DNA from: Ypsolopha sequella
Taxonomy: Eukaryota; Arthropoda; Insecta; Lepidoptera; Ypsolophidae
Reading direction: 5' to 3'
DNA length: 64,000 bases
Assembly: GCA_934047225.1 (NCBI GenBank)
Contig: OW203991.1
Coordinates: 8,866,001 to 8,930,000 of the forward strand
Shown here in pieces: positions 6,821-58,851 of this stretch. Position numbers and translations under genes: made by a program. Below the pieces are notes generated by a model. That model was not told where the DNA came from. It saw only the letters and a program-made list of their open reading frames with translations, and ran no database searches. Position 1 is the stretch's first letter, and each line of letters starts with the position of its first letter.

Positions 6821-6822
6821 TA

Positions 6823-27225: not shown

Positions 27226-27284
27226 ACATTAGGACAATTAGGATGTCTATCCATTGAGGTATTATTACCAGGTAATTTTTTACA

Positions 27285-28794: not shown

Positions 28795-28964
28795 GTTCCG
28801 TATTCAAAGGGTATGTACCAGATCGAATGAGGTTTTCATTGCCTCTGGTCCGGTAAAAAAGAATTATTATAGTGATTTGGAGCTGCAGTATTGCAAAGGA
28901 TTTGATTTGTTTCATTTCTAAACTAAATGGGGGGGGGAGGCGAGACAGATGTTTAATTTATTAG

Positions 28965-29740
28965 GCTGAGGTAGCTTGACGGTTTTATTTTTATAAAAGG
29001 AGGGTTCTGCAAATACTGATCTCAAGGGGAAATCTGAATGAATTGTTTGAAACAATATTGTAACTCATTCATACTATCGCGACTTTTGTTATCACCATTC
29101 GTCGTTAAATACTATTGTTTAATGGAACGAACAAGCGAAGCGAGTTTGTGTTTATTAGAATATTCAACCAAAAGCTCAAGATGTGTAGGACAAACTACTA
29201 AATAGTAATAACGTTTGTACACAATTTACAACTCTGGTTTACTTTAGATTCGTATTTGTTTGAGAATTTTATCAATGATTAGTGACATTGAAAAATAAAA
29301 TAAAATAGTTAGATTACATTTAAACAAATTTACCTGGAAAGCCTTTTAAGGGTTTTCATTTTGTTTCTGAAAAATAGGTGTCCCAATTGATGGCGACACA
29401 AAGTCTAGACAAACGTTCGAATTAGGCGCCATGAAGTCTGGACAGGCTGTATCACGTGACCACATGTAGCGTCATTCCAATAAGGAAACGTATGAAGAAT
29501 TTAATAGGCTGATGTAGCTTGACGAGTTTACCTTTATAAAAGGAGGGTTCTGTAAATGTTAATTTTAAAGGGGAATCTGTTGGATTGTTCATTTATTTCT
29601 GATGAATGTTTTATTGTTATTTTTATGTTTAATTCCTAGGTTTCAACATTTTATCCTTATTATCAAGATGTTTTCTTCCCATAAATCATTGTTAAATATG
29701 AATGTTTTATAGAACGGGCAATTGAAGCGAGTTCATGTCT
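28965..29740 (+). repeat. Duplicated U3 blocks, each with a TATA-like box
   Basis: Block 1 (28965-29160) and block 2 (29505-29740) share taggctga.gtagcttgacg, ttataaaaggagggttctg and an end box gaacg..caa..gaagcgagtt. TATAAAAGG occurs at 28992 and 29535. Neither is followed by a clear initiator at the right distance, so these may be decayed promoters or enhancer-like repeats. Confidence 0.6.
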
Positions 29741-30139
29741 ATTCAAGTGATAGAGTGAGTGTATATATGTAAGTATGTGTATGTGAAGGAGCGTTGGTAT
29801 AACAAGAGCCAGAGTTGGTTGGAGCATCGTGAAATAAGGTACGCGAGTGAAATTAGATAAAGGGAAATTAGGGTTGTAAGTACGAACAAAATTGGTAGGA
29901 AAAAGGCAGAAAAGTGGATTTGTAGGAGATTACATCGTGGCTCCGAGGAGCAGGGCAACATATTAGTTAAGTAATAATTACTTATCGGTTATGTTTTACT
30001 CTATGTTCGTGATTTTAACTACAAGGATACAAACGGTAAGGTAACACCTAAAGGATTCTAGTTGGGAGGACTTTTAAAAGGTTTTCATTTTACAAATTCG
30101 GACCCTAAAAATAATCTTCCATCCGGTCGGAACAGAGAT

Positions 30140-30204
30140 TATAAAAGGGGGTGCAGCGGGAGATAGGAGATCAGTCAACCTTCGACCACCGAGATGGAAG
30201 GATC
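30140..30204 (+). promoter_or_regulatory. Core promoter in the LTR: TATA, TCAGT initiator, DPE
   Basis: TATAAAAG starts at 30140. An arthropod initiator, TCAGT, lies at 30171-30175 with the start A at 30173, 33 nt downstream. GGATC at 30200-30204 fits the DPE consensus RGWYV at +28 to +32. The same three elements with the same spacing occur in the 3' LTR (54579, A at 54612, 54639). This places the U3/R boundary about 1.36 kb into the LTR. Confidence 0.7.
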
Positions 30205-30440
30205 ATCACGAAGAGGAGGGAACCTTCAACAGCCGAGATGGAACAGTCATCACGAAGAGGAGTTAATCATCGACAGCCGAGATGGGACAGTCATCGCAAA
30301 GGGATCAGTAAGTCTTCGACAGCCGGGATGGAACAGTCATCACAAAGAGGTCAGTTAACCTTCGGCAGCCGTTAAGGAACAGTCTCGGGGGCGATAGCTA
30401 GGAGAATCAGGCCATCCGTGCAAGAGGAGCTGTGTTCCGG
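30173..30440 (+). ncRNA. Predicted noncoding first exon, ending in a consensus splice donor
   Basis: It runs from the initiator to ccg|gtgagt at 30440/30441. Most of it (30179-30387) is a tandem array of about 4.6 units of 44-46 bp sharing gacagccgagatgg and cagtcatcac.aagag. The 74-aa frame across it (30151-30375) begins upstream of the predicted start site and has repeats in its protein too, so translation is doubtful. A repeated, probably structured leader would suit packaging or regulatory roles, but that is inference. Confidence 0.5.
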
Positions 30441-30567
30441 GTGAGTTGTTTATTTTATCACTTTCTTTAAATTCTATATTTTTTTTATTGTGTATGGAAA
30501 TAATTTGCAGTGGCGTTACTAAATTTTCTACGTCTTATAGGTGCACCGTGTTAAATTTTATTCTTAT

Positions 30568-31185
30568 TCTTGTGTGTATGTGAAGTAATTTACTGTGATT
30601 TCACCCGATTATCTACAACTAATACGTCTTGGATTCGTGAAGCAGATATCTTCATTATTTCTTACCATATTTTAACATTTGTGTGTGTGTATGTAAATTA
30701 GTTACTTCAATTTTCACCCGAATATTTACGTCTATACGTCGTGTTTTTGAATACTGAATTATTTCTTACTTTGTTATATTTTTGTGTGAGTAGGCGAACT
30801 ACAAAGGATTCTTCCGGTTCTTTTGTTTCCATCTCTTACTTTACTTAATATGTGTGTGTATGTAAATAAGCTACTGCAATTTCACCCGATTATTTACATC
30901 TAATACGTCTTGGATTCGAGAAGCAGATATTTTTATTATTTCTTACCATATATGTGTGTGTGTGTGTGTATGTAAATAAGTTATGTACTTCAAATTTCAC
31001 CCGAATACTTACGTCCAATACGTCGTGTTTTTGAACAGGTTGCTGAACTTTTTTAGCTGTGTTATTTCTTACTTAGTTATATTTTTGTGTGAGTAGATAA
31101 CTTACAATGGATTCTTTTCCTCTTTCTTTGATAATTGTCTTTTGTTTTCATCATTTACTTTACTTAATGTGTGTGTGTGTGTGTG
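30568..31185 (+). repeat. GT-microsatellite higher-order repeat in the LTR
   Basis: Two sub-units alternate: one with cacccgatta.ctac..ctaatacgtcttggattcg and one with cacccgaata.ttacgtc.atacgtcgtgttttt. Each is introduced by a (tg)n run and atgtaaa.ta. The A-B pair occurs twice, with a period of about 270-300 bp. The 3' LTR carries the same structure. Confidence 0.75.
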
Positions 31186-32914
31186 CGTGTTAATTTACTT
31201 TGATTTCTCTCGTTTTCTACCCAGTTAAATTTAAACAAAGTGTAGGATAAAATATGTATTAATAGGAAATTGTCTTATGTGATGTATTGGAACCAACGGG
31301 GCTATGAAACGTAGGGTGTGAATTTCCGAACACAACCCAAGCCTTGTTGAAAATAGCTTTGGAATTGTGTATTAACAAAGTAACCCTTTGAACACGTTCC
31401 AGGTGTAAAAGAATCACATATCTTGTACAGTTATATTCTTCAGATTTAAATGAACATTTTAAATAGAAATTTCTTTTAACGACCGTTCATGTTGAACTTG
31501 CTTCGTTTGGAACTACATTGAAACTATAGATTTTCATAAATACTTACCAATTTTGTAATAAAGACAGCTTTCCCATTGAGACAGTAATACTGTAGGGAAA
31601 ACTCAATCGTAGCTACGGAATCTATAAATTAGTATCCTATTTAGCTCGCGGCTCTAAAGATAGACATCTCTTTTGGGAATGTAACTAGCATAAAAGCAAA
31701 GGATTACATTTCTATAAATAATATGAAATAGTAATTTGGTTTTCCATAAAATTTTGGAGAAGGAACAATTCTTTAAATGACAAATTCGTATTGTGCCTGA
31801 AAAGTTGAGGTACCTTATGGAATGCTGAGTTTATTTGCGCCAGGGCCGTTCCCAGCCCTATGGTTCAGCAATGCAATACCATCGTAGACATTTATACACT
31901 AAACGGGGTAAATGTCCTACACTTCGTCAGGTGTAAATAAATTTATCTTCCAGTCAGCTAATTTGAAGAAATAGTAAAATTGGCAGCGGTATAAATCTTT
32001 CGCTATTGGAGTTATTCTGGATCCAAAATCATGTAAATCTAGCTGAATACATGTACGAAGTTTGTTTTGAAAAATGAATCAAGACCACTTCAATTTACGT
32101 CTTTAGTCAGGCTAAAAATAGGCTTATGACTTATCCAATACGATCACATGGTTACGTTTCTAAAGAGATGTCTTCTCATTCAGTTAAAAGTGACTGATCT
32201 TCTTTCTAGCAGTTTTAGCTGAGTTACGTATCGGTGTAAGATCTCGTATAGTAGGAGCACTTCAGGGTTTCTTGTTGGTTCTTCCCTGTTGGTGTGTAGT
32301 TAGGGAACCATCACTCGTAGTAGGCTCATTTAAAAATAAAAATAAAACAATTAAAAGAAACACTCGTAGTAGGCTCGTTTAAAATAAAAATAAAACAAAT
32401 AAAAATATAAAAAAACCTAACAATACAAACCTTTTAAAGATTTCTCCTGAAGGTTCTAACTGGTGTTTGATCAAAAAACAAGCCACATGAACGTTTATTA
32501 TACTAGTAATGTCGTACAATATAAATACACGACGAATTACTTAAAACTAAGCAGAAATGTAGTAATAACAGGTTGACAATGAAATTGAAACCTAACTAAC
32601 TAAACAAATAGTGTAATATTTAATGAACTTAAATGTTTGTCACCCTAAAAAGAGTGGTGCAAGTATTGTTATTGTTCATCTAATAAATATGATGTTCAAA
32701 TTGTAAAGTAAATATTATTTTGTTAAAATCTCAGTTTCAAAATAAGCTAACTAAGAAATAAAAATAAAACAAATAAAAAAAAGTCTTGGGAGTATTCCAT
32801 ATCCAGGGGAAAGTACCTTCATGACATAACTTAAGACTTCATATCGAAGCTTCTTGTTACATATATGATTACATGAAATAAAAATTCTATCCTACTCCAT
32901 ACCATAGGAGAGTT

Positions 32915-33296
32915 ATTGGAAAGATCGGCTAAATAAGTCGTCTTCTATTCTTACAACATTTTATTGACTAAAAGTCGAAGTGATTGACTCTATCGAAAAT
33001 GATCAGAGTGGATCTCAAATGAATTTATTACTTAATAAAATAAGATGAATTTATTGGGAAGATCGGCTAATTATGTCATCTTCTATTCCTTCAGTATTTT
33101 AATGACTAAAAGTCGAAGTGATTGACTCTATCGAAAATGATCAGAGTGGATCTTATATGAATTTATTACTTAATAAAATATGTTGAATTTATTGGGAAGA
33201 TCGTCTAAATAAGTCATCTTCTATTCCTACAACATTTTATTGACTAAAAGTCGAAGTGATTGACTCTATCGAAAATGTTCAGAGTGGATCCTCATT
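32915..33296 (+). repeat. Three tandem 138-bp repeats in the LTR
   Basis: Units start at 32915, 33053 and 33191 with attggraagatcg.cta and share gactaaaagtcgaagtgatt and gactctatcgaaaatg.tca. The third is cut at about 33296. They are present again at about 57353-57734 in the 3' LTR. Confidence 0.85.
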
Positions 33297-33708
33297 TAAA
33301 TATTTATAAAATGTGATACATGAAGATACTCGACCTTATCCATTCCCGCTTTACTGGTTGTGGTTATAAAAAAAAAAAAAAACAAATTGCTGTAAAACTT
33401 TGCAGAGACCAATTCCAAACCTCTACACCAAATTGTGAATTGTCTAGATCTACTTAGTCTTTCCAGATAAAATGATTTTGGATTGACTAAGAGAAATAGT
33501 TTGACTTGCTTTATACAATTACATTACTTTCATATTAAATAATAACAAAGAATTTTACGTCACAATTAAATAAATAAAGCGATAACTAAACAAACTCATA
33601 CAAAATTACTAGGGACAATATTAATGCATATTTTCACTGAAACTCTTCATAGGATTTTATCATTATAGTCTTGTTATTACTCTTCAATGTAAATGGAGTC
33701 TAGTATAC

Positions 33709-34173
33709 TGAGCACGCGATATGACGGCAGTGCTTTGTATCACCATAGGTTTTAAAAATAGCGGGAAGTGAAGAGAAATAATTACGAAGATGAAAGATCT
33801 GACCTTGGGAAGGAGCTGCATGCACCACAAACCACGCTTCGCCTGAGCCACCAAGTCTCTGGTGTTCTCCAAGATGGTTTTCTTCTTCCTCTTCGTGCCT
33901 GGTTGCGCTCTTCTCGGCTAATCTTCTTCGTAATAGTAATAGATGAAAATGAGGCGCACAGCGGGTGCGATCTCAAAATGGCGGGCGGTAGGGTCGAGGT
34001 AGGACCTAGTCGAATGACAATCAGCGTATACCTCCGGCGTGAAAGGCTTCTGATTGACGACTGATTGATTTGCGTCCAAAACTAAGCGGGTGGAGATGCA
34101 GCGAAAATGACAGTTGAAAATATTAATTCACAACTACCCCGCAGTATGAGAGCCACAAGAAGTGGCGCGAACA
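33709..34173 (-). repeat. BEL 3' LTR
   Basis: It is 465 bp and appears identical to 40066-40530. It lies on the left because the element is on the - strand. The 98-aa + strand frame inside it is present in both LTRs and is incidental. Confidence 0.95.
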
Positions 34174-34187
34174 TTTGCCCCCGGCGT
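34174..34187 (-). promoter_or_regulatory. BEL polypurine tract (candidate)
   Basis: Read on the - strand, cgccgggggcaaat abuts the 3' LTR. Its position fits plus-strand priming. The tract is purine-rich but not pure. Confidence 0.5.
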
Positions 34188-34273
34188 TAAAACCATTGGT
34201 TTTAAAATAAGAATAGAAAAGTAAAAATAAGACAGAGAATAACGAAATTTTGAAGCGGGGGCAAAGAAAGGAG

Positions 34274-37045
34274 TTATTGAGATGGGAGAGGGCAAAGACG
34301 CACGACAGGTCGTTTGTAAACACCTGTCGTCGTTTTGACAGAAGCTACCCTAATGACATTATCTTTGCCAGGGTATACAGCTACAATAACACCGAGCGGC
34401 CATTGAAGCGGTGGAGTGTTATCGGTAACTACAACGACAACAGATCCAATTTTGATTGGGTTGGAAGGTGTATTCCATTTTCCTCTAGACTGGAGAAGAT
34501 GGAGATAATCATTCTTCCATCGCCTTGCGAACGATTCTACCATTTGATCAAGCAACGCGTAGCGACGTAATAAATGAACTGGCTCATCAGCCACCTTACA
34601 AGCGGGTAATTCTTTTAAAGGAGTTGACATCAGAAAATGTGCAGGAGTTAACGCGCTAAGTTCAGATGGATCTTCACTCAGCAGCGTAAGCGGACGAGAA
34701 TTTATGACACATTCTATTTGCGTAACTACAGTTAATAATTCTTCGTAGGTCAACAGTTGAGTACCTACTACTCTATGCAAATGCGTCTTAAATCCTTTGA
34801 CATATATCTCATAATGTCCCCCAAAATGTGGGCTACGTGGAATATTAAATTTCCATTGTATTCTATGATCGGCAAGTTCATTCGCGAAAGACGTTTTAAA
34901 TTCTTCGGAGTTTGTCAAATTGTAAATTTCTGAGAGGGCATTTCTAGCGCCTACAAAGTTCGTAGCATTATCTGAATATACGAAAGACACTGCTCCACGT
35001 CTAGATAAAAAACGTTTGAACGCGGAAAGAAAAGTGTTCGTGCTAAGATCAGTTGCCAATTCAACGTGAACTGCACGAGTCACCAGGCATACAAATATGC
35101 AGAGGTAACATTTGACGGGACGGACTCCACGTTTTCGATACGGAGTGATACTGATAGGACCACAATAATCCACAGCGCAGTGGACAAAAGCTTTAGCCTC
35201 ATTAACGCGGCATGATGGTAAATCTGCCATGAAAGGGAAGGTTTGTCTCGGCTTCGCCTTAAAACAATAATTGCAGCTATGTATTACGCGACGAACAATA
35301 TTTCGACAGGAAAGTATCCAAAATTTTTGGCGGATTATTGACATTAAAGCCACTGGTCCAATGTGACAATTTTTGCGATGATAATGAATGATAATCAATT
35401 CGACAATATGATTTTTACGAGGTAACAACACAGGGTGTTGTTGATCGAACGTCATGTCTGTGTTGCGAAGTCGACCACCAACGCGTAACAATCCATTTTT
35501 ATCTAAAAATGGCGATAGTCGATTTAAAGCGGGAGAACAAAGTTTATTTGACTTTAATCTTTTTATTTCATCAAGAAAATAAAATGCTTGAAGAGCTTTA
35601 ATCAATGCAACTTCAGCGAAATCCATATCGGTAGCGGTAAAAATATTAGAGCGCGGTAAAATACGTAAAAATCGGTAGATGTAAATGATTGTGTGTAAAA
35701 GCACAAGCCATGACGAAATTCTTTCCGAAAGAGAAAGAAGAGGATGCGGTTCTTCATTACTAAAAGCGGGAAGAGAAATTGTTTTTGATTCCGGCAAGTT
35801 TTCTTCAATAGAAGCTGATTCTATTGTTTTGATTGGCCACTCTTTAGCGTCCAGATAAAGCCAAGCAGGTCCAGTGAACCAGAGCGGGTGACTCATCAAC
35901 TGCGTGGGAGTGAGACCACGGGAAAGACAGTCGCTCGGGTTTTGAGAACCAGCTGTATGGTAAAAACATTCAGCGGGAATAGCGGATATTATTTTTGTTA
36001 TACGCGTCGCGACAAAGGTTTTAAACCTGTGCGGTGAGGAATGTATCCAGTGTAAAGTTACCATAGAATCGGTAAAACAGTAAATACGTTCAATATTGTG
36101 ACGTATTTTATAAGCGTCAACTACACGACGAGTTAATTTCGACATGAGTAACGAGGCACAAAGCTCAAGGCGGGCGACACTGACGGTCTTGAGCGGACAG
36201 ACTTTTGACTTTGCGCATACCAGCCGAATGCTAGTGCAAGTGTCTGAGTCATCTTGTACTCTAATATATACGACACATCCGTATCCACGTTCACTTGCGT
36301 CTGCAAATGATATTATCGAAATTTTCGAATTTTGGAACACGTCTAAGTGGCGTTTAATACGTAAATCCCGCAAAACAGGTAGCTCCTTCAAATAGTTTTG
36401 CCAAATCTGCGCAATATCAGAGGGTAGTGTTTCATCCCAGTCTAATTTTAAAATACAGATTTTCTGCAAGAGTAATTTTGCGTACAAGATCACAGGAGCG
36501 GTAAAGCCGAGGACGTCGTACTGACGTGCTATCACGGACAAAACATTGCGTTTAGTACATGGGCGACTATCTAGCGATACAGTAAAAGAGAACTCGTCAG
36601 AATCAGGCGACCACTGTAAGCCAAGAACTTTAAGAGTTTGAGTTTGTTCTTCAAAATTCTTACTAGAATTTAAGCGGTGAGTATCAAGCAGTGTATCAAG
36701 TAACTGTTGACAGTTACTAGACCACTTGACGAGCTCAAAGCCACCGGCCTTAAGCAATCCTACCAGCTCATCTCTGAGCTGTAAGGAGCCCTGCACGGTG
36801 GGCGTGCTATAGCAGATGTCGTCCATGTAACAGTTTCGTGCGGCTACAGTAGCGGCGAGCGGGTACGCTGAACTCCCATCCTCACAGAGTTTCCTGACTA
36901 CTCTCATCGCAAGGAAAGGGCTACTACGTAGTCCAAAGCAGACGCGATTGAACTGATAAGCGATAAGCGGTGAACACGTGTCAAAGCGGTATAAAAACTT
37001 TTGAAATTTGCGATCATCGGCGTTAACCAAAACTTGTAAGAACAT
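34274..37045 (-). pseudogene. BEL/Pao pol: RT (second part), RNase H, integrase
   Basis: This 923-codon open frame carries the RT catalytic YMDD box (about residue 73). It then has RNase H with acidic residues in SFADASERGYG (about 245), LELCASLLMS and YCFTDSM (about 325), and NPSDCLSRGL. The integrase has an HHCC zinc site (HIGP...CNYC, about 558-590), first D in VDYCGP (about 626), second D in VYSDNATNF (about 690) and E in GGHYEIYVK (about 742). This DDE triad is complete. The frame opens just upstream of its first ATG and is out of register by one with the upstream gag-RT frame. The N-terminal RT motifs therefore lie in the other open frame, and a polyprotein cannot be made without frame correction. 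Otherwise the reading frame is uninterrupted, as expected of a recent copy. Confidence 0.93.
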
Positions 37046-37073
37046 TTGTTTGATATCCGAGGTAAAAGCGATT

Positions 37074-39602
37074 TTAAAATAAAATTAAAAACAAATCGTT
37101 TTGCAAATTAGCACCTGTGTGCAGCGTGTCATTTAATGAGACACGAGTACCATCAGCGGAGTCAGTCTTAGTACTGGCATTCATACAAATACGCACCTTT
37201 GTCGTTGATTTATCAACACGCACTACGGGATGATGCGGAATATAATAACCAAGAGATAATTGGTCATCATTATGAAGCGGGGATATGTAACCTTTAGTTA
37301 GGTATTCATTTATTATATTGTTATACTCGGAACGTAAATCTGCGTTAGAAACAAACCTACGCTCAAGAGACATAAAACACTTTTTTGCGTGATGGTACGA
37401 GTTTCCTAGTATGTTAGGATTCCGTGCGAACGGTAAAGAAACCGAATAGCGACCAGCGGGGTCACGTGACACATTGTTAATAAATAATTTTTCACATTCA
37501 TCATTTGCGGGACTAGAAGCAGGTTCACAATGCACCTCTTCTAATTGCCAAAATTTTTGTAAAATAAAATCTATTGGCGGTTCAATCTCCATATAAGAGC
37601 ATAACGAAATTGAACATGCGGTATTTTGGTAAACAGGCGTATTACCAATTAGCGTAAAACCGAAGATGGTCTGAAATCCCGTCGGCGTACCCGGGGGACC
37701 AGAGACGCGGCCTGATAACAAGATATCCGCGAATAAAGATGCACCGATAAGAATATCAATCTCGCCCGGTAAGTAAAAGGTTTCATCAGCAAGTGTGATA
37801 CCTTTTAAATATGAAAGCGTAGACAAATCGACCTGCACCGATGGTAAGTTGTCGGTAATACGGTCGATTACATAAGTGTCAAGCGAAATTGAAACCGAAT
37901 CATCAAATCGTGAAAACAATTTAAGGTTTGTCGCACCCTTAATTGGGTTTGATGAAGAGCCGATGCCCTTAACAAAAGCGCGGGGAATTTTCTCATATTT
38001 TAAGTTAAGCTTCTCACAACAGGAAACCGTCGAAAAACTGGATTGTGACGCAGGGTCGCAGAGCGCACGTAGACGGACTGACATACCGTTAGAATCTTTC
38101 ACGATCACTTGAATTGTACCTAAAAGGCATGTTTCATTACGCTGCGAGTTAGGCTGTAAGTTACATAAAGAAATATTATTACTCGCAGTTGGTACGGATT
38201 GAGAATCATTAGTCATATGTTCTGTGTTAGTCGCCGATACGGCAGGATCCACCAACCTCGAAGATTGCGTATGTGTGCGTGGAGACACGGTAATATTTTG
38301 ACCAAGCGCGGTGTGAGTATTCATCACATTTTGTTTGCGGCACAACATCGAATGGTGTTTACAATTACAATGGCGGCAATTATAAGACGATTTACAAGCG
38401 GAATTGTTATGCGTAATACTTAAACAATTGGTGCAACCGTTATTAGATTTGATGAACTGAAATCTTTTCTCGATATCTAGTTTCACAAATTCGGGACACT
38501 TATATAAATTATAGTGTTTTAATTGTTTACATAGCGGACAACAATTATTATTGGTCGAAGCGGAGACAAAAGCATGGGTTGACTTGGTACTGTACCCGGT
38601 TTTGTTGTTATTATTATTAACGGAGCGGTTCGGAGCGGGAGCGGTAATTGCGGGTGCAGTGCGGTTCAGTATCTTAGTTTGTTCCCGTAAAAATGATATT
38701 AATTCATCATAATGGGGTAAATCGGAACCACGTTTAAACATTTCAAATGAACGAGCGGTTTCAACATCAAGTTTTTTAAGGGCCAAATACATAAGGATAA
38801 AATCCGAAAGATCTTTAATATTCAGTGATTTTAAACACGAAACAGCGGAACAGAACTTGTCTAAAAACAAGTCCAAGTTTTTTGAACTAGCGGTAGTTAA
38901 AGGGCGAAATTCAAACATTTGATCCAAATAAGTAGTGGCTAAACTACGCGAGTCTTGAAAAGTAGAAACGAGTGTTTTCCAGATTATGTCGTAGTTAGTT
39001 GCGTTCGGTGTGATTCCAGAACAAATCGAAAGTGCCCGGCCAGAAAGTTTACCCATCAGGTATTGTACTCGTTCGTTGTCGGTCAAGTCCGGATTATCGT
39101 GAATCGTGGTTTTAAATGTTTCATAGAATGTTGGCCACATAGTAGCTTCACCAGAAAAACCAACGAGTTCCAGTTTTGGAAGCTTGATAGTAGGTTTTTT
39201 GGGACATTCCATGTCACGTGGAGCTTTAACTTTAGAGTCAGCCGATTTCGAAGAATGTGATAACTTCCGGTTGATGTATTTGCAATGGGAGTAAAGATCC
39301 TCAAAAGCTGACCAACTTTGATAATTTGGTTCAAAATTAGGATTTATCAATACCTCTGTGTCATTAATTTCATCTATGATTACATGAATTTCTGAGCGTA
39401 CAGTATCCAATGTTTCGACATTGGCCATAAACAATTCTGCCGAAGAAACATCCTCTAAAGCGGTTTTAGAAAAGTCATAAACTCTCTGAAGGCGATTAAA
39501 CAATTCTTGCCTTTTATTTTTAAGCTTCTTTAAACTATACGACATCTTTAATTTTGCAGCTTCTGCGGAATTTGGCATGTTATATAGTACAAAGTTAGGC
39601 AA
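37074..39602 (-). pseudogene. BEL/Pao gag, protease and start of RT
   Basis: This 842-codon frame starts at the ATG at 39602, about 460 nt inside the 5' LTR. Its N-terminal half is a BEL-type gag (coiled-coil-like start, then FSGEATMWPTFYETF and the LMGKLSGRAL region). Zinc-binding motifs follow: CPLC (about 354), CTNCLSITHNNSAC (a CX2CX4HX4C knuckle, about 390) and CRHCNCKHH (about 414). The aspartic protease active site is ALCDPASQSSF (about 514). Early RT motifs VRVDKSTTKVRICMNAS and SLNDTLHTGANLQNDL (about 795-830) close the frame before it stops at 37074. The stop falls inside RT, upstream of its first catalytic aspartate block, which marks a small insertion or deletion rather than a normal gag-pol junction. 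Confidence 0.93.
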
Positions 39603-40041
39603 GTACCAGAACTATCGAAAGTTTTATACTGACTACAACATAGAATAGTGCTAATGAGTTAGAGATAACACGGGCGGCGGACGAACCTGTGTACGAGTAC
39701 CTCTCGATAATATTAAGAATTAGCAGGTAGGCAGATAATATTTTCTGTGAAATGATCAAATGGTATAATCGCAGCGGATAAATTAACAGAATGGCGTATT
39801 TCACTGTAGATAATTTATAATTTCCAGTATATAGGAAATGGAATCACTAATATTTTGACGAATGCGGGGTTTTAATGCATAGATAATGCAAATAAGAGCG
39901 GGAATGCGGGGTAATACTGCGGGCAGAGTGAAAATTAGAGCGGAATTCACGTGTTCTTTAGACAAAGAACATGAAGATAGCGGTTGGAAATACCAAAAAA
40001 TGGTTATAGATCGCAGATCAAAGGGCCTAAAATGGATCTAG

Positions 40042-40059
40042 ATCCGGCTCGAATGGCCA
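40042..40059 (-). promoter_or_regulatory. BEL primer binding site, tRNA-Tyr-like (candidate)
   Basis: On the - strand, TGGCCATTCGAGCCGGAT begins 6 nt from the end of the 5' LTR. Its complement ends atccggctcgaa...cca, close to the 3' end of an insect tRNA-Tyr as I remember it, with about two mismatches next to the CCA. The tRNA identity needs a direct comparison. Confidence 0.5.
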
Positions 40060-40065
40060 AAAAAA

Positions 40066-40530
40066 TGAGCACGCGATATGACGGCAGTGCTTTGTATCAC
40101 CATAGGTTTTAAAAATAGCGGGAAGTGAAGAGAAATAATTACGAAGATGAAAGATCTGACCTTGGGAAGGAGCTGCATGCACCACAAACCACGCTTCGCC
40201 TGAGCCACCAAGTCTCTGGTGTTCTCCAAGATGGTTTTCTTCTTCCTCTTCGTGCCTGGTTGCGCTCTTCTCGGCTAATCTTCTTCGTAATAGTAATAGA
40301 TGAAAATGAGGCGCACAGCGGGTGCGATCTCAAAATGGCGGGCGGTAGGGTCGAGGTAGGACCTAGTCGAATGACAATCAGCGTATACCTCCGGCGTGAA
40401 AGGCTTCTGATTGACGACTGATTGATTTGCGTCCAAAACTAAGCGGGTGGAGATGCAGCGAAAATGACAGTTGAAAATATTAATTCACAACTACCCCGCA
40501 GTATGAGAGCCACAAGAAGTGGCGCGAACA
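40066..40530 (-). repeat. BEL 5' LTR
   Basis: It is 465 bp, with TG...CA on the - strand. An arthropod initiator motif TCAGT reads on the - strand at 40421-40417, within atcaatcagtcgtc, and could be the start site. No matching DPE was found at +28. Confidence 0.93.
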
Positions 40531-41241
40531 TATACAAATACTATAGATCTTGGGTCTTCGAGATTACAACGACATGTCATGTTTAGCTAGAATGTTGCAC
40601 AAATAATCTGCATACAAAGTTTATTTACATAGACAATTTAAGTGCCTTACTTTTCTCTTAATAGGTTACAACTAGCTCCTTTCGGTTAGCTCATTTCCAT
40701 TTAAAAGTTACTCGTATGATAACTAATATATCTTCTTATAGATGAACTAGTACTTAACTTTGTAGGTCAATTATTTTTATTATTTATCAATTACATTTTG
40801 ATTATGTTGTAGGAGGCTTATTTTTATACTCGATCTTACTAAAAGAATCAGGGTTACGTAGGTGCGGTACACAACGTAGGTGCTCATACCACTAGACGAC
40901 GATCATGGCCAAAGACAAGACTAACACGTTTCATGCCTCATTAGTGCATCTTTTTATAGCCCAGCGGTTTGTTAATTAATATTTAGATAGGTCATAAATT
41001 CATAACTATAGATAGAGAAGTTCAGTATGATAAGTAGTAAGTTAGGTTAGTCAGAGCATAGGTTTATAGGTAATTAAACAGCTAGGTAGGTATAGACAGC
41101 TCGGCATATAGTTAGAGCTAGCTAGGTATAGAGATAGGTAGTCAGTCAGCTTGAGTTAGGTAGATAGCCAGTTAGGGATAGCTAAAGATAGGTAGTTAGA
41201 TAGATGTATAGATCAAAAGGTAGAAAAGGTATCTTTTCAAC

Positions 41242-49420: not shown

Positions 49421-49433
49421 AGGGATCTGTTAG

Positions 49434-49598
49434 AACAGAGACGCGATTGCGGACGATCGGTCTGATACAAATATTTTTGACATCATTTCTCCCGTTTTAG
49501 ACGATTTGGAGAAATCATCGAAATATATTATTATTAAATTTGACGAGAATAACATATTAGCTGACTGCGTTTATTTTGTATTAGATACAGTTTTGTGA
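49434..49598 (+). other. Candidate terminal coding exon (weak)
   Basis: Fifty-four open codons, with an acidic composition (DIISPVLDDLEKSSKYIII near the middle), run to a TGA at 49596-49598 and lack an ATG. Upstream, aacttttctag (ending 49422) and ttagaacag (ending 49438) could be splice acceptors. The segment gatctgttagaacagagacgcga at 49424-49446 recurs as gatctgttaaacagaaacgcga at the very end of the window, so the block is dispersed. No family is recognised. Confidence 0.25.
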
Positions 49599-49620
49599 GG
49601 AAGGAAGCGTGGGAACACTT

Positions 49621-51351
49621 GATGATGATTTAGAGGTGGGACACCTGCTGGGCACAGGCGGATGGTCGGCTCTCCAGTTGGATCTATTCCATCCAGTTCC
49701 CATTGCTTGGAGCTTTGGTATCCTATTGTCCCAGTGGCATTCCCTCCTCAAATCTTCCACTTCTCTTAGTATATCTTAATATGTCTGAGTACCCAAGGTA
49801 CTTGAGGTCTTCTTCTTTAATGTGATCATTACCAAATACTTCCCATCTTAGGCTAGAATATATAAAAAGCATTCACCTAAGTAGTGCTTACTCGTTTCCT
49901 CCTCGCTGCAGTGCGGGCAAGAGGAGTCCTCCTGTACCTTCATTATTGACAGATGTCTGTTCAGCCTACAGTGGCCAGCCAGAATACCCACCAACGTACC
50001 TAGATTGATTCTACTTAGATTAAGAGTGTACCTTACTTTTTTTTAGACGATAGTCGAGAGAAACATTTTCGACTGTCGACCGCCCTCAATGTTCCTCCAT
50101 TCATCTGCTGATTCTGATGAAGCCAAACGGCTTATTACCTTATTAGTGACGTTTGCCGGAATAGGGATCCTAGGTTCAGGTCCAATGAACCTATCCTCTG
50201 CACCTTCTCGGGCTAATTCGTCTGCTTTTTCATAACCTTCAACTCCTTGATGTCCTGGGACCCAGGCTACTATTGTTTCAGTTTTTTCACCTAGCTTATT
50301 GAGTGTTTTTTACACTCTCCTACTAGAGCCGATTTATTTACTGGATTTTTAAGCGCAAGAAGTGCTGCTTGGCTGTCCGAGTAAATAATGACTGTTTTCT
50401 CGTTTATGTCCGACCTTGAGAGTACCATACTGGCGCATTCCATGATGGCAAATGTTTCTGCCTGAAATACGGTAGCCAAGGTACCTAGTGAGTAGGATGC
50501 GATTCCTTCTTCTTCATCTTTATCAGGTATAAAGACACCAGCTCCTGCTAGTCCTGTACTACCTTTCCCTGAGCCGTCCGTATAGCAATTAATGCTCGGT
50601 CGGTCTGTCAGTAACTCCCAGTCTTCTCTGGTTCCTATATGTATGCGATATTTTATTTTATCGAATAATATTTCTTTCTTTATCAGGTCATTATTGGCAA
50701 GGAGCATTTCGAAATTACAGCCTGATTTATCTGCTATGGAGGCATGCCCTTTATCCATAAAGTTGCCCTTCCACTCTTTGTTATTTTCATTCTGTACCAT
50801 TGCTCGGTAGCTCTCTTTTTGACCTCAATGTGCAAGGGATTTAGGCCTATTATCACTTCCAGAGCCCTGGTTGGAGTTGTTCTCAGAGCTCCAGTGACCA
50901 TGAGGCATGCCAATCTTTGCACCTTGTCTAGCTTTTTCTTGTGGATTGTATGTATGCTCTTGGCCACCATACAATTGCTCCATATAGCACTCGTGGTAGA
51001 ATGATGGCCTAATATATCCAGTGCATTATGCTAGGCGTCAGACCCCATTTACTACCCACTGCCCTTCTACATTGGAAAAGTGTTCTTATGACTTTACTAC
51101 ATTGTGATCTAACATGAGTGTCAAATCTCAGTTTGTGGTCGAAAATCACTCCAAGGTACTTTATTTCTTTAACTTCTTCTAGAACTGTGCCCTTCAATTT
51201 GATAGGTTGTAGTTCCTTAGGCTTCCTCTTGTTTGTGAAGAGAACTAGTTTAGTTTTACTGGGATTTAGATCAAGTCCTTTATCTTCACACCAGTCCAAC
51301 ACTTTTCTTATTGCAGTGATCATCCGAGATCTCACCGTGCTTAAGTCTTAA
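49621..51351 (-). mobile_element. 5'-truncated non-LTR retrotransposon with RNase H
   Basis: It is flanked by the 12-bp duplication gtgggaacactt (49609-49620 and 51352-51363). On the - strand it opens in the RT thumb/connection region (DWCEDKGLDLNPSKTKLVLF, about 51290-51230). It continues through an RNase H domain with YTDGSGKGSTG, AETFAIMECA and IYSDSQAALLAL (catalytic D, E, D), then an AWVPGHQGVEGYEKADELA block and a CPHCSEEETS zinc-finger-like end. It finishes with an atcatcatc tail at 49621. The frame is broken near 51009, 50970-50800, 50291 and several times later. I place it in the RNase H-bearing I/LOA-like group. Endonuclease and RT palm are lost. Confidence 0.85.
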
Positions 51352-51363
51352 GTGGGAACACTT

Positions 51364-52082
51364 AGGTATTGTTGAAAGTAGAGTTAGAGTTTTAAGTGTT
51401 TGTCATTTAAATGTAGAGGTTTATTTATTTGGTTACGAAATATCTTTATAATATATTTTCGCTCAGATTTAAATATGAGGGAATGGTCTCTGAATGAAGT
51501 ATTTGCCATGATATTGAGATATATTATGGTACTCATAGAGACATTGTTGTTGAAATGAGGATTATATTTCTTTGACAGTTAAGATTGACACAGACTTCAA
51601 CGATATTTTAATTAGGAATATTTTAATAACTGTCTGTTTCAACCAAAATTCAACATCCACTCGATAAGCGCAATTAAATATGACATAGTGGTCACGAAGT
51701 AAGACCAAGTAAATGATGAGAGGTTTGGAATAGGTTGACTTTACCTACTGACCTACTTGGGAAGTTTTACACGCAGCATATTAAAAAAAATGGATTCTAG
51801 ATTTTATAGTGACGAATCACGTTTTAAATATTTAAATTAAATCCAGGAATCGATTTCGGAGCCTTGTAGAGCTATGCATGAAAACTATAAAACAAGGATT
51901 TATAGAGTACCTAATTATAAATATTATTTAGTAGATAATGATAGAAAAATTTTACTTCAAACCAAAATTTTGATAATAACAAGCTAGAAACTAGGTGGTG
52001 CACACACACATATTAACGAACTGTAAACTTAAGAATTAAGATTTACCAAAAAAAAAAAAATAATAATAATATCGGGCCTTTT
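51364..52082 (+). other. Giant-element internal region, noncoding
   Basis: AT-rich. A 55-codon frame ending at about 51573 (SDLNMREWSLNEVFAMI in part) has no recognised domain. Confidence 0.4.
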
Positions 52083-52320
52083 ATGTATTTTGCTGTTACT
52101 GGAATGGTGTACTATCTCAAAGAGAAAAGCACTAAGATTCGTTTATCAGAGATGGAGAAGGAAATTGATGATTTGGATGGTTTGTGTTTCTATTATTTTA
52201 TGCCAATTTACTAATGCTTAAAATGTAATTTTATCTGTTTCAGAGACTACGATAAATTTTTTTTTCTTTTCTTCTTTCTCTTTCAACAGTCAACAGTTGG
52301 GTATTGGTGTGGTGTTCTAG
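52083..52320 (+). other. Candidate two-exon small ORF with a textbook minimal intron
   Basis: An ATG at 52083 opens 32 codons rich in charged residues (KEKSTKIRLSEMEKEIDDLD near the end). A 64-bp intron would run from 52180 (gatg|gtttgt) to 52243 (ttttatctgtttcag|ag), with a tactaat branch-site match at about 52210. Splicing keeps the frame open for 25 more codons to a stop at 52320. A second strong acceptor (tttctctttcaacag) lies at about 52289. No domain is recognised, and the polypyrimidine-coded tail looks unlike a protein end. The acceptors may instead serve the LTR splice donor. Confidence 0.3.
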
Positions 52321-53240
52321 ATAATACAGATTATCTAGTGACATTAACTTATTAAAGTTGTACACACTTGTACTTAGCGTAGATACTGTCTAATTTATAA
52401 CATAAGGGCAGTTCATTAATACCCGGTATGACGGGTAAATCTCTATTGAACGGACTGATGGATCCTAAGAGTAGCGTGAAAGGAAGAGATCGCGATACAA
52501 ATGAGATGTATGAGGAAAAGTTGTTTTATTAGGTAAAATATTACAATACCTATAAAAGTGTATATGTATGTATATGTATTTGATATATATTTGAGACTTT
52601 TGTGGTAAGAAGATTGTAAATGAGGGCTCTAAGGAGACAACAGATCTGACAATAGAGGTTAAATTATCATGGTTTTGACCAGAGACATTACACATATCAT
52701 GGACTTATTATGGAAAATTGGTGTTAGGTTAAATTACATAGAAAAAAGTACATGGTAAGTCCTTACTCTACAGAAGCTAATACTCCCTTTTTCGGCAACT
52801 ATACAAGCTCCAAGATACTGATTAGGATGCTAGAGGAAGGACTCCAGTCGAGATAAGTAAATGACGGGATAGTTCTGGTGAGGTGGCCCATTGCTTGGAA
52901 TTTAGTGCGATTCGAGATAATCTGATAGCAAGTCCAGTGTTAATCGAAAAGTCGGATTGGGCTGGAAGGCTATTCTATAATCGCAGGATTGGCTGGGCCC
53001 CACATCCCGGTTCTCACGTTGTGTTAAATGCCATGCGGTCGAAATAAGGGCTATCCATTATTGATTTATTAAAAAAGAATGGAGACTGGATACTAGTAGT
53101 TCCGGTTGGTGGATTGGTTTAAAGATACACTACAACAAATGCACCCTGGTAGAAACTATAATAATTTGTTTTAATGCGATGCTAATGGAATTGAGAAAAA
53201 TTTTCTACGGTCAAAATAATTAGGATCTGCGAAAATGTTT
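52321..53240 (+). other. Giant-element internal region, 3' part, noncoding
   Basis: No gene was seen. The 76-aa (52465-52695) frame on the - strand has no domain. Confidence 0.5.
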
Positions 53241-53251
53241 TGGGGGCGAGC
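53241..53251 (+). promoter_or_regulatory. Giant-element polypurine tract (candidate)
   Basis: tgggggcgagc abuts the 3' LTR start at 53252. Most bases are purines, and its place fits plus-strand priming. Confidence 0.55.
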
Positions 53252-56200
53252 TGTACCAGATCGAATGAGGTTTTCATTGCCTCTGGTCCGGTAAAAAAGA
53301 ATTATTATAGTGATTTGGAGCTGCAGTATTGCAAAGGATTTGATTTGTTTCATTTCTAAACTAAATGGGGGGGGGGAGGCGAGACAGATGTTTAATTTAT
53401 TAGGCTGAGGTAGCTTGACGGTTTTATTTTTATAAAAGGAGGGTTCTGCAAATACTGATCTCAAGGGGAAATCTGAATGAATTGTTTGAAACAATATTGT
53501 AACTCATTCATACTATCGCGACTTTTGTTATCACCATTCGTCGTTAAATACTATTGTTTAATGGAACGAACAAGCGAAGCGAGTTTGTGTTTATTAGAAT
53601 ATTCAACCAAAAGTTCAAGATGTGTAGGACAAACTACTAAATAGTAATAACGTTTGTACACAATTTACAACTCTGGTTTACTTTAGATTCGTATTTGTTT
53701 GAGAATTTTATCAATGATTAGTGACATTGAAAAATAAAATAAAATAGTTAGATTACATTTAAACAAATTTACCTGGAAAGCCTTTTAAGGGTTTTCATTT
53801 TGTTTCTGAAAAATAGGTGTCCCAATTGATGGCGACACAAAGTCTAGACAAACGTTCGAATTAGGCGCCATGAAGTCTGGACAGGCTGTATCACGTGACC
53901 ACATGTAGCGTCATTCCAATAAGGAAACGTATGAAGAATTTAATAGGCTGATGTAGCTTGACGAGTTTACCTTTATAAAAGGAGGGTTCTGTAAATGTTA
54001 ATTTTAAAGGGGAATCTGTTGGATTGTTCATTTATTTCTGATTAATGTTTTATTGTTATTTTTATGTTTAATTCCTAGGTTTCAACATTTTATCCTTATT
54101 ATCAAGATGTTTTCTTCCCATAAATCATTGTTAAATATGGATGTTTTATAGAACGGGCAATTGAAGCGAGTTCATGTCTATTCAAGTGATAGAGTGAGTG
54201 TATATATGTAAGTATGTGTATGTGAAGGAGCGTTGGTATAACAAGAGCCAGAGTTGGTTGGAGCATCGTGAAATAAGGTACGCGAGTGAAATTAGATAAA
54301 GGGAAATTAGGGTTGTAAGTACGAACAAAATTGGTAGGAAAAAGGCAGAAAAGTGGATTTGTAGGAGATTACATCGTGGCTCCGAGGAGCAGGGCAACAT
54401 ATTAGTTAAGTAATAATTACTTATCGGTTATGTTTTACTCTATGTTCGTGATTTTAACTACAAGGATACAAACGGTAAGGTAACACCTAAAGGATTCTAG
54501 TTGGGAGGACTTTTAAAAGGTTTTCATTTTACAAATTCGGACCCTAAAAATAATCTTCCATCCGGTCGGAACAGAGATTATAAAAGGGGGTGCAGCGGGA
54601 GATAGGAGATCAGTCAACCTTCGACCACCGAGATGGAAGGATCATCACGAAGAGGAGGGAACCTTCAACAGCCGAGATGGAACAGTCATCACGAAGAGGA
54701 GTTAATCATCGACAGCCGAGATGGGACAGTCATCGCAAAGGGATCAGTAAGTCTTCGACAGCCGGGATGGAACAGTCATCACAAAGAGGTCAGTTAACCT
54801 TCGGCAGCCGTTAAGGAACAGTCTCGGGGGCGATAGCTAGGAGAATCAGGCCATCCGTGCAAGAGGAGCTGTGTTCCGGGTGAGTTGTTTATTTTATCAC
54901 TTTCTTTAAATTCTATATTTTTTTTATTGTGTATGGAAATAATTTGCAGTGGCGTTACTAAATTTTCTACGTCTTATAGGTGCACCGTGTTAAATTTTAT
55001 TCTTATTCTTGTGTGTATGTGAAGTAATTTACTGTGATTTCACCCGATTATCTACAACTAATACGTCTTGGATTCGTGAAGCAGATATCTTCATTATTTC
55101 TTACCATATTTTAACATTTGTGTGTGTGTATGTAAATTAGTTACTTCAATTTTCACCCGAATATTTACGTCTATACGTCGTGTTTTTGAATACTGAATTA
55201 TTTCTTACTTTGTTATATTTTTGTGTGAGTAGGCGAACTACAAAGGATTCTTCCGGTTCTTTTGTTTCCATCTCTTACTTTACTTAATATGTGTGTGTAT
55301 GTAAATAAGCTACTGCAATTTCACCCGATTATTTACATCTAATACGTCTTGGATTCGAGAAGCAGATATCTTTATTATTTCTTACCATATATGTGTGTGT
55401 GTGTGTGTATGTAAATAAGTTATGTACTTCAAATTTCACCCGAATACTTACGTCCAATACGTCGTGTTTTTGAACAGGTTGCTGAACTTTATTAGCTGTG
55501 TTATTTCTTACTTAGTTATATTTTTGTGTGAGTAGATAACTTACAATGGATTCTTTTCCTCTTTCTTTGATAATTGTCTTTTGTTTTCATCATTTACTTT
55601 ACTTAATGTGTGTGTGTGTGTGTGCGTGTTAATTTACTTTGATTTCTCTCGTTTTCTACCCAGTTAAATTTAAACAAAGTGTAGGATAAAATATGTATTA
55701 ATAGGAAATTGTCTTATGTGATGTATTGGAACCAACGGGGCTATGAAACGTAGGGTGTGAATTTCCGAACACAACCCAAGCCTTGTTGAAAATAGCTTTG
55801 GAATTGTGTATTAACAAAGTAACCCTTTGAACACGTTCCAGGTGTAAAAGAATCACATATCTTGTACAGTTATATTCTTCAGATTTAAATGAACATTTTA
55901 AATAGAAATTTCTTTTAACGACCGTTCATGTTGAACTTGCTTCGTTTGGAACTACATTGAAACTATAGATTTTCATAAATACTTACCAATTTTGTAATAA
56001 AGACAGCTTTCCCATTGAGACAGTAATACTGTAGGGAAAACTCAATCGTAGCTACGGAATCTATAAATTAGTATCCTATTTAGCTCGCGGCTCTAAAGAT
56101 AGACATCTCTTTTGGGAATGTAACTAGCATAAAAGCAAAGGATTACATTTCTATAAATAATATGAAATAGTAATTTGGTTTTCCATAAAATTTTGGAGAA

Positions 56201-58851
56201 GGAACAATTCTTTAAATGACAAATTCGTATTGTACCTGAAAAGTTGAGGTACCTTATGGAATGCTGAGTTTATTTGCGCCAGGGCCGTTCCCAGCCCTAT
56301 GGTTCAGCAATGCAATACCATCGTAGACATTTATACACTAAACGGGGTAAATGTCCTACACTTCGTCAGGTGTAAATAAATTTATCTTCCAGTCAGCTAA
56401 TTTGAAGAAATAGTAAAATTGGCAGCGGTATAAATCTTTCGCTATTGGAGTTATTCTGGATCCAAAATCATGTAAATCTAGCTGAATACATGTACGAAGT
56501 TTTTTTTGAAAAATGAATCAAGACCACTTCAATTTACGTCTTTAGTCAGGCTAAAAATAGGCTTATGACTTATCCAATACGATCACATGGTTACGTTTCT
56601 AAAAAGAGATGTCTTCTCATTCAGTTAAAAGTGACTGATCTTCTTTCTAGCAGTTTTAGCTGAGTTACGTATCGGTGTAAGATCTCGTATAGTAGGAGCA
56701 CTTCAGGGTTTCTTGTTGGTTCTTCCCTGTTGGTGTGTAGTTAGGGAACCATCACTCGTAGTAGGCTCATTTAAAAATAAAAATAAAACAATTAAAAGAA
56801 ACACTCGTAGTAGGCTCGTTTAAAATAAAAATAAAACAAATAAAAATATAAAAAAACCTAACAATACAAACCTTTTAAAGATTTCTCCTGAAGGTTCTAA
56901 CTGGTGTTTGATCAAAAAACAAGCCACATGAACGTTTATTATACTAGTAATGTCGTACAATATAAATACACGACGAATTACTTAAAACTAAGCAGAAATG
57001 TAGTAATAACAGGTTGACAATGAAATTGAAACCTAACTAACTAAACAAATAGTGTAATATTTAATGAACTTAAATGTTTGTCACCCTAAAAAGAGTGGTG
57101 CAAGTATTGTTATTGTTCATCTAATAAATATGATGTTCAAATTGTAAAGTAAATATTATTTTGTTAAAATCTCAGTTTCAAAATAAGCTAACTAAGAAAT
57201 AAAAATAAAACAAATAAAAAAAAGTCTTGGGAGTATTCCATATCCAGGGGAAAGTACCTTCATGACATAACTTAAGACTTCATATCGAAGCTTCTTGTTA
57301 CATATATGATTACATGAAATAAAAATTCTATCCTACTCCATACCATAGGAGAGTTATTGGAAAGATCGGCTAAATAAGTCGTCTTCTATTCTTACAACAT
57401 TTTATTGACTAAAAGTCGAAGTGATTGACTCTATCGAAAATGATCAGAGTGGATCTCAAATGAATTTATTACTTAATAAAATAAGATGAATTTATTGGGA
57501 AGATCGGCTAATTATGTCATCTTCTATTCCTTCAGTATTTTAATGACTAAAAGTCGAAGTGATTGACTCTATCGAAAATGATCAGAGTGGATCTTATATG
57601 AATTTATTACTTAATAAAATATGTTGAATTTATTGGGAAGATCGTCTAAATAAGTCATCTTCTATTCCTACAACATTTTATTGACTAAAAGTCGAAGTGA
57701 TTGACTCTATCGAAAATGTTCAGAGTGGATCCTCATTTAAATATTTATAAAATGTGATACATGAAGATACTCGACCTTATCCATTCCCGCTTTACTGGTT
57801 GTGGTTATAAAAAAAAAAAAAACAAATTGCTGTAAAACTTGCAGAGACCAATTCCAAACCTCTACACCAAATTGTGAATTGTCTAGATCTACTCAGTCTT
57901 TCCAGATAAAATGATTTTGGATTGACTAAGAGAAATAGTTTGACTTGCTTTATACAATTACATTACTTTCATATTAAATAATAACAAAGAATTTTACGTC
58001 ACAATTAAATAAATAAAGCGATAACTAAACAAACTCATACAAAATTACTAGGGACAATATTAATGCATATTTTCACTGAAACTCTTCATAGGATTTTATC
58101 ATTATAGTCTTGTTATTACTCTTCAATGTAAATGGAGTCTAGTATACAAATACTATAGATCTTGGGTCTTCGAGATTACAACGACATGTCATGTTTAGCT
58201 AGAATGTTGCACAAATAATCTGCATACAAAGTTTATTTACATAGACAATTTAAGTGCCTTACTTTTCTCTTAATAGGTTACAACTAGCTCCTTTCGGTTA
58301 GCTCATTTCCATTTAAAAGTTACTCGTATGATAACTAATATATCTTCTTATAGATGAACTAGTACTTAACTTTGTAGGTCAATTATTTTTATTATTTATC
58401 AATTACATTTTGATTATGTTGTGGGAGGCTTATTTTTATACTCGATCTTACTAAAAGAATCAGGGTTACGTAGGTGCGGTACACAACGTAGGTGCTCATA
58501 CCACTAGACGACGATCATGGCCAAAGACAAGACTAACACGTTTCATGCCTCATTAGTGCATCTTTTTATAGCCCAGCGGTTTGTTAATTAATATTTAGAT
58601 AGGTCATAAATTCATAACTATAGATAGAGAAGTTCAGTATGATAAGTAGTAAGTTAGGTTAGTCAGAGCATAGGTTTATAGGTAATTAAACAGCTAGGTA
58701 GGTATAGACAGCTCGGCATATAGTTAGAGCTAGCTAGGTATAGAGATAGGTAGTCAGTCAGCTTGAGTTAGGTAGATAGTCAGTTAGGGATAGCTAAAGA
58801 TAGGTAGTTAGATAGATGTATAGATCAAAAGGTAGAAAAGGTATCTTTTCA
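53252..58851 (+). repeat. 3' LTR of the giant element (5,600 bp, uninterrupted)
   Basis: This uninterrupted copy of the LTR carries the same promoter (54579-54643), leader repeats (54618-54826), splice donor (about 54880), higher-order repeat and 138-bp repeats. Differences from the 5' copy include c/t at 29173, a 2-bp insertion (ctaaaaagag) near 56602 and runs of differing length. Confidence 0.93.

What the first reader, a model, noticed from the sequence alone, without database searches (positions are those of the whole stretch)
28814..58851. A ~23-kb non-autonomous LTR retrotransposon with 5.6-kb LTRs in an insect genome
The sequence shows TG...CA LTRs of about 5.6 kb, a 4-bp target duplication (ggta), a tRNA-His primer site and a polypurine tract, yet no gag-pol in 12 kb of internal DNA. 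Insect LTRs are usually a few hundred bases to about 1-2 kb. Elements of this build are known mainly as plant LARDs. LTR divergence of about ten substitutions means it moved recently, so something supplies proteins in trans. I regard this as the best candidate for an undescribed system in the window.
Basis: partly seen in the sequence, partly recalled or inferred. Interest (0 to 1): 0.88.

Follow-up and report, generated by a model that had tools for sequence, protein, structure and literature searches.

The report
Giant gene-free LTR retrotransposon family
This 23-kb stretch is one copy of a family of very large mobile elements with terminal repeats of about 5.7 kb, in which no gag or pol genes were found, and it likely spreads by borrowing the copying proteins of another, still unidentified retrotransposon.

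Summary
In detail: a 5.6 + 12.0 + 5.6-kb LTR element (28814-58851) with a GGTA target duplication, an 18-nt primer site matching tRNA-His (tRNA recalled), a polypurine tract and no gag-pol. Its 5' LTR is split by a young BEL/Pao element. The host assembly (867 Mb) has at least 9 copies with both internal ends. The 7 read have perfect, different 4-bp duplications and near-identical LTR pairs (0-10 substitutions per 5.7 kb), share the interior, and differ from each other by 1.3-2.4% in the LTR. A second family (27 places; one read, also without gag-pol-sized frames) and a third share a non-coding core beside the polypurine tract; this lies in the least variable part of the interior. The element is a recently active, LARD-type, non-autonomous LTR retrotransposon. 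LARDs are already annotated in insects, including a moth, so the kind is not new. Two unusual points: the clade may have diversified while gene-free, and 9 of the 10 LTR/primer-site junctions found share a site with three mismatches to tRNA-His, the window copy being the exception. No helper was found; that search stayed incomplete, and host identity was not tested.

The parts
28810..28813 (.). left target-site duplication GGTA
   Evidence: read in sequence; 7 of 7 copies read have matching, mutually different 4-bp duplications
28814..33708 (+). 5' LTR, first part (ends with TATAC, the BEL target site)
33709..40530 (-). nested BEL/Pao retrotransposon with 465-bp identical LTRs, duplication TATAC at 33704-33708 and 40531-40535; coding frames 37074-39611 (DUF1759) and 34274-37084 (RT, Peptidase_A17, integrase, DUF5641)
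40536..41239 (+). 5' LTR, second part, ending TTTTCA
41242..41259 (+). primer binding site TGGTGCCGTGACCAGGAT, 2 nt after the LTR; complement of the recalled insect tRNA-His 3' end
   Evidence: tRNA-His sequence recalled, host gene not looked up because that search did not complete
41240..53251 (+). interior without gag-pol, 12,012 bp (12.0-12.7 kb in 6 of the 7 copies read; the seventh, C19, holds a nested BEL element)
50291..51347 (-). broken antisense fragment of a non-LTR retrotransposon (end of RT, then RNase H), a passenger present in the six copies aligned
52535..53251 (+). conserved non-coding core upstream of the polypurine tract, shared with family B and, by match positions, C
53237..53251 (+). 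polypurine tract GTTTTGGGGGCGAGC
   Evidence: pattern for tract plus LTR start hits 37 places (9 A, 27 B, 1 other), 0 in the reversed-pattern control
53252..58851 (+). 3' LTR, 5600 bp; pieces of LTR positions 2878-4576 are shared with family B, and that block has fewer variable sites
58852..58855 (.). right target-site duplication GGTA

Best explanation
The window holds one 23-kb copy of a multi-copy LTR retrotransposon family of LARD type in which no gag or pol genes were found, and which is predicted to be copied and inserted by proteins supplied in trans by an unidentified, probably Ty3/gypsy-type helper element. Shown: intact LTR ends, 4-bp duplications, primer site, polypurine tract, LTR pairs nearly identical within a copy but different between copies (the footprint of reverse transcription), a shared interior without gag-pol, and a non-coding core shared with a second family (and, by match positions, a third). 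Inferred: the 5' LTR would drive one long RNA. The helper's particle would package it, with the conserved core and the shared LTR block as likely cis signals. A tRNA, probably tRNA-His, would prime the first strand and the polypurine tract the second. The helper's integrase would insert the product. Clustered private substitutions in 4 of 6 interiors suggest template switching between co-packaged RNAs.
For: Termini and duplications in 7 of 7 copies read. LTR-pair substitutions 3, 0, 2, 2, 3, 9 and 10 per about 5.7 kb against 71-136 between 3' LTRs of different copies. No gag-pol in six frames of the window interior. In each of the 7 copies the longest frame lies in the antisense RT/RNase H region (only the window's frames and two of C16's were scanned). 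Junction, 3'-interior and polypurine-tract searches: 10, 10 and 9 A places, 9 places having all three. Second family B, one copy read without a frame above 125 aa; 3 kb of a third, C. Core: 15 segregating sites in 717 against a mean of 36.5 for windows of that size, 2.7% of windows as low; the lowest window (13 sites) overlaps it. No frame bias in A/B differences, 61/70/65. Clustering of private substitutions: 0 of 2000 shuffles reach it in 4 of 6 copies; C16 (P 0.078) and C4 (P 0.28) show none.
Against: No helper was found. The three terminal searches returned mainly A and B places, and the four His-type places outside A and B plus one odd polypurine-tract place (C20) could not be read. The helper's superfamily rests only on the 4-bp duplication (rule recalled). 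The nine variant primer sites fit plain tRNA-His priming poorly. Transcription was not tested. One of the clustered stretches (window copy, interior 7801-8100) lies in a gap-rich part of the alignment. The shorter A/B LTR matches (E 2e-9 to 5e-9) stand only somewhat above the reversed-sequence control (E 2e-7 and 4e-6).
Confidence: 0.87

Rival explanations
1. The family is an ordinary autonomous retrotransposon whose coding copies exist elsewhere in the genome; the copies seen are internal replacements of it.
For: Non-autonomous LTR elements often derive from autonomous ones (recalled). Four tRNA-His-type sites (C7, C8:26354814, C13, C17) and a polypurine-tract place on C20 belong to neither A nor B by these searches and were not read. 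The primer sites of 18 of the 27 B places were not seen.
Against: The 7 A copies, the one B copy and the 3 kb of C that were read have no gag-pol-sized sense frame. Seven of the 9 B copies with both pattern ends have 9.2-9.7 kb between them, the size of the copy read; two (C6 15.0 kb, C29 12.0 kb) are longer and unread.
Confidence: 0.25
2. Assembly artefact or chimeric repeat with no real mobility.
For: None found; no long reads were available.
Against: Seven copies on six large contigs have the same structure and different perfect target duplications.
Confidence: 0.01
3. The antisense RT/RNase H frame in the interior supplies the reverse transcriptase in cis.
For: 347- and 192-aa frames in C16 and, without indels or added stops, in C10b, with RNase H and RT matches in C16. 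For the longer frame the nonsynonymous to synonymous count against C16 is 58:28 over five copies (2.1), below the 3.6 expected from opportunities, which weak constraint could give.
Against: A stop separates the two frames; the RT match covers only profile positions 163-205 and is below cut-off; four of the five other copies have indels or stops; the shorter frame shows 37:10 (3.7 against 3.5 expected); transition bias also lowers the ratio and the five comparisons share C16. It reads as a truncated LINE passenger.
Confidence: 0.02
4. Endogenous retrovirus (errantivirus-like provirus) that lost its genes.
For: 4-bp duplication and LTR build are compatible with Ty3/gypsy relatives (recalled).
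Against: No trace of gag, pol or env in six frames of the window interior. LTRs and interior are far larger than in known insect errantiviruses (recalled).
Confidence: 0.05

Closest known systems
LARDs (large retrotransposon derivatives; first described in barley and relatives, recalled)
   Same: Large LTRs, long conserved interior without genes, primer site and polypurine tract, presumed trans-mobilisation.
   Different: Host likely an animal (BEL/Pao neighbour, rule recalled; not tested). 5.6-kb LTRs and a 12-kb interior exceed the classical sizes as I recall them. Several diverged families share one core.
Insect LARD-class repeats annotated in Apis (PMC4028053), Bombus (PMC4414376), Cotesia typhae (PMC8549517) and the moth Scirpophaga incertulas (PMC10923946)
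   Same: Same operational class of retrotransposon derivative.
   Different: In the passages seen these are pipeline totals; no element anatomy, ages or conserved core is given there.
Master-less non-autonomous LTR elements of Culex quinquefasciatus (PMC3286476)
   Same: No coding sequence, no recognisable autonomous parent, tRNA primer site.
   Different: In the table rows seen, LTRs are 208-931 bp and duplications mostly 5 bp; the interiors carry tandem repeats.
Helenus and other TRIMs (PMC10886601)
   Same: Trans-mobilised; some vertebrate and bivalve Helenus families use tRNA-His.
   Different: TRIMs are under 1 kb in that paper, and Helenus has a tRNA-like LTR sequence.
Woot of Tribolium (Ty3/gypsy; long LTRs recalled)
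   Same: Unusually long insect LTRs (recalled).
   Different: Autonomous (recalled); Osvaldo-like elements of mosquitoes, some of them close to Woot, use tRNA-Lys (PMC3286476 passages).

Membership tests
LARD | paired LTRs with TG...CA ends and target-site duplication | tested here: met
   7 of 7 A copies read; not testable for B, whose 5' LTR was read only in its last 1264 bp
LARD | primer site and polypurine tract at the interior's ends | tested here: met
   the primer site is an exact tRNA-His match only in the window copy among 10 A junctions
LARD | no gag-pol coding capacity | tested here: met
   six-frame Pfam of the window interior; frame lengths only, in the 6 other copies
LARD | long interior conserved among copies | tested here: met
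   12.0-12.7 kb, 1.4-2.9% pairwise difference among the 6 copies aligned
LARD | mobilised in trans by an identified autonomous partner | tested here: inconclusive
autonomous Ty3/gypsy element | gag and pol frames between the LTRs | tested here: not met
endogenous retrovirus / errantivirus | env or pol remnants | tested here: not met
   window interior only
TRIM | total length about 1 kb or less | tested here: not met
   23.2 kb without the nested element
BEL/Pao (nested element) | Pao peptidase, RT, integrase, 5-bp duplication | tested here: met
   RT and rve matches slightly below Pfam cut-off (27.2 of 29.6 and 29.2 of 32.6 bits), Peptidase_A17 and Integrase_H2C2 above

The most novel reading that the evidence does not exclude
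A whole clade of giant LTR elements that diversified into at least three families while carrying no genes, held together only by a conserved non-coding RNA core and LTR block that a foreign helper recognises. Within it the dominant A lineage has moved to a primer site that no perfectly matching host RNA gene seems to explain: nine of ten junctions found carry it, and a 15-base part of it occurs at only one other place in the genome. That would mean an unusual way of starting reverse transcription, or template-biased repair of the primer site.
Probability: 0.3. Interest if true: 0.68.

Novelty: new member of a known kind. Interest (0 to 1): 0.5.

Why it matters
In the insect papers seen, LARD-class elements appear as pipeline totals. 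Here is a dissected, recently active case with dated copies, related families and a delimited non-coding core. That makes an open question testable: what does a helper recognise in an RNA that shares no genes with it, and how is a primer site kept that does not match its tRNA?

Tried and rejected
Rejected: assembly artefact, gene-containing element, antisense RT in cis (see rivals). A host RNA gene matching the variant primer site: the 15-mer occurs only in nine A copies and at C10:27092196, about what chance gives by my own estimate (1-2 expected), and that place was not read. C25 was fetched as a possible solo LTR, but its 3' end motif was not found, so solo status is not shown. The PDB search of the antisense frame added only RNase H likeness. 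Sent but did not complete, so not done: leader-region searches of A and B, the tRNA-His gene, and the Lepidoptera marker family PF03260 (marker role recalled). Scripts 41 and 45 stopped with errors and were done again as 42 and 47.

Full report
What is there. The element runs from 28814 to 58851. The 3' LTR is 53252-58851 (5600 bp). The 5' LTR is 28814-33708 plus 40536-41239 (5599 bp) and is split by a BEL/Pao element at 33709-40530 with identical 465-bp LTRs and a TATAC duplication. The flanks repeat GGTA. The interior, 41240-53251, starts AC + TGGTGCCGTGACCAGGAT and ends GTTTTGGGGGCGAGC. The two LTRs differ by 10 substitutions over 5597 sites.

Coding capacity. Pfam scans of all six frames of the window interior, with X at stops, give no gag, protease, integrase or LTR-type pol. 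They give only two RNase H pieces below cut-off on the minus strand. Frame-by-frame scans give RNase H above and an RT piece below cut-off there. In the other copies the longest frames lie at the same place, up to 347 and 192 aa; the two of C16 match RNase H and the end of an RT. Most comparisons show indels or stops, though C10b is as open as C16. Nonsynonymous to synonymous counts are 58:28 and 37:10 against 3.6:1 and 3.5:1 expected from opportunities. I read it as a decaying, truncated non-LTR passenger.

Copies. A search with the first 587 LTR bases scored 40 of 93 candidates and lists 31 full-span LTR starts at 86-100% identity. LTR-to-primer-site junctions: 10. Last 552 interior bases at 96-100%: 10 places. 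Exact polypurine tract plus LTR start of type A: 9. Nine places have all three. Seven were read: C16, C19, C10 twice, C5, C4 and the window. All seven carry matching 4-bp duplications: GTAA, CAAG, CAGA, ATAT, ATGT, GTAT, GGTA. Their LTRs are 5.6-6.0 kb, except that the 5' LTR of C4 holds about 2.5 kb more.

Age. LTR-pair substitutions are 3, 0, 2, 2, 3, 9 and 10. The window copy is the oldest of the seven. At a recalled lepidopteran rate near 3e-9 per site and generation this is zero to about 0.3 million generations, if the host is a moth or butterfly (not tested). Between copies the 3' LTRs differ by 1.3-2.4% and the interiors of six copies by 1.4-2.9%, so old lineages are represented by young insertions. 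Private substitutions are clustered in 4 of 6 interiors, as template switching would leave them; one cluster, in the window copy at interior 7801-8100, lies in a gap-rich stretch, and C16 and C4 show none.

Related families. The last part of the interior matches 27 further places at 67-69% and three at about 71% in two pieces. One of the 27 was read (C15, L037/L038). It has a 5130-bp 3' LTR, a 9284-bp interior, primer site TGTAGCCGTGACCAGGA and polypurine tract CGGGGGCGA, and no frame above 125 aa on the whole stretch; only the last 1264 bp of its 5' LTR were read, 99.2% identical to the 3' LTR, so its duplication is untested. Its LTR shares four collinear pieces with LTR A between A 2878 and 4576, and its interior shares the terminal 0.7 kb. 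The reversed-sequence control gave two matches elsewhere (E 2e-7 and 4e-6), so the interior match (3e-76) and the first LTR piece (4e-18) are secure and the three shorter LTR pieces (2e-9 to 5e-9) rest partly on their order. Three kb of a third family (C3, L039) is 73% identical to B over 1.1 kb and has no frame above 108 aa. The element strand of A, B and C has on average more G than C (for B; for A and C), while 3-kb windows of the window's left flank stay between -0.08 and 0.07; some 1-kb stretches inside the element, such as 46001-47000 and 49001-51000, lack it.

Constraint. The shared interior core has 15 segregating sites in 717 bases among 6 copies. The mean for windows of that size is 36.5 and 2.7% of windows are as low; the lowest window, with 13, starts 141 bases upstream and overlaps it. 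The LTR stretch 2878-4576 has 0.026 variable sites per base against 0.050 elsewhere among 7 LTRs, not tested for chance. A/B differences in the core show no codon rhythm (61/70/65), mostly one-base gaps, and stops in every frame. A non-coding cis function is the simplest reading. Which function (packaging, export, priming) is not known.

Primer site. The pattern CAACTGNNGCCGTGACC finds 14 places, 0 in the control: 9 belong to B copies (7 with the exact tRNA-His form, 2 with TGTA), 1 is the window, and 4 are unassigned. The other 18 of 27 B places do not show this pattern, and their sites were not read. The nine other A junctions read CAGCAGGTTCCGTGACC, and in the six of them that were read the stretch continues to AGTAT. 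Against the recalled tRNA-His end this has three mismatches in 18, one at the position of the tRNA's last base. Because the B copies seen mostly have the window's form, the variant is likely derived. If tRNA-His primed these copies and the primer-site heteroduplex were resolved without bias, nine of nine keeping the mismatched form would be unlikely (about 1 in 512, inference). So priming differs, repair is biased, or these nine share a very recent source, which the LTR divergence of the six read argues against. The variant's 15-mer occurs at only one other place.

Helper. No place with both end signals was seen to carry gag-pol, but few could be read. Four primer-site places and one polypurine-tract place (C20:23455084) lie outside A and B and could not be read. 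Of 9 B copies with both exact patterns, 7 have 9.2-9.7 kb between them, and C6 and C29 have 15.0 and 12.0 kb (computed). The helper question stays open.

Prior art. From passages: LARD plus TRIM make up 4.09% of the honey bee genome (PMC4028053); LARD/TRIM in bumblebees (PMC4414376); LARD 8.84% in the moth Scirpophaga incertulas (PMC10923946); LARD 35% of the classified elements in the wasp Cotesia typhae (PMC8549517); 38 Culex families without coding sequence or master copy, and one LARD-like element cited there (PMC3286476); Helenus and Ajax (PMC10886601); Tribolium repeats, where Woot is only mentioned (PMC2397513). Listings seen: (no hit). None of those listings or passages describes this element or a multi-family gene-free clade with a conserved core; the library is open-access papers only.

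Verdict. A real, well-formed, recently active LARD-type family, of a known kind, with a notable non-coding core shared between families and an unexplained primer-site variant.

Noticed in passing
window 23218-25487: Five tandem 396-bp units and one inverted unit, each with a tRNA-Ser (TGA)-like gene.
   Followed up: no
window 33709-40530: A BEL/Pao element with two long frames and identical LTRs, so very young; relatives at 97.6-99.4% identity also sit in LARD copy C19 and in L032.
   Followed up: partly
L029 and L031 (C144, C74): A-type LTR fragments next to long arrays with repeat spacings of 18 and 43 bases on small contigs (the rows for L030 were cut from the output).
   Followed up: no
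L033-L036 (C88, C71, C62, C34): Four small contigs share nearly identical 10-kb stretches (99.97-100%) with an LTR fragment; recent duplication or unmerged haplotypes.
   Followed up: no
G000:C8:8580212-8609580: Three family-B 3' ends spaced 14.4 kb apart in one orientation, the length of one B LTR plus interior, which suggests tandem units.
   Followed up: no
window 41240-58851, L037/L038, L039: Average excess of G over C on the element strand of A, B and C, absent in 3-kb windows of the window's left flank; some 1-kb stretches inside the element lack it.
   Followed up: partly
window 6226-6822, 60098-60367, 9148-9510 with 27280-27644: Inverted repeats of 128-365 bp outside the element, possibly DNA transposon ends.
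   Followed up: no
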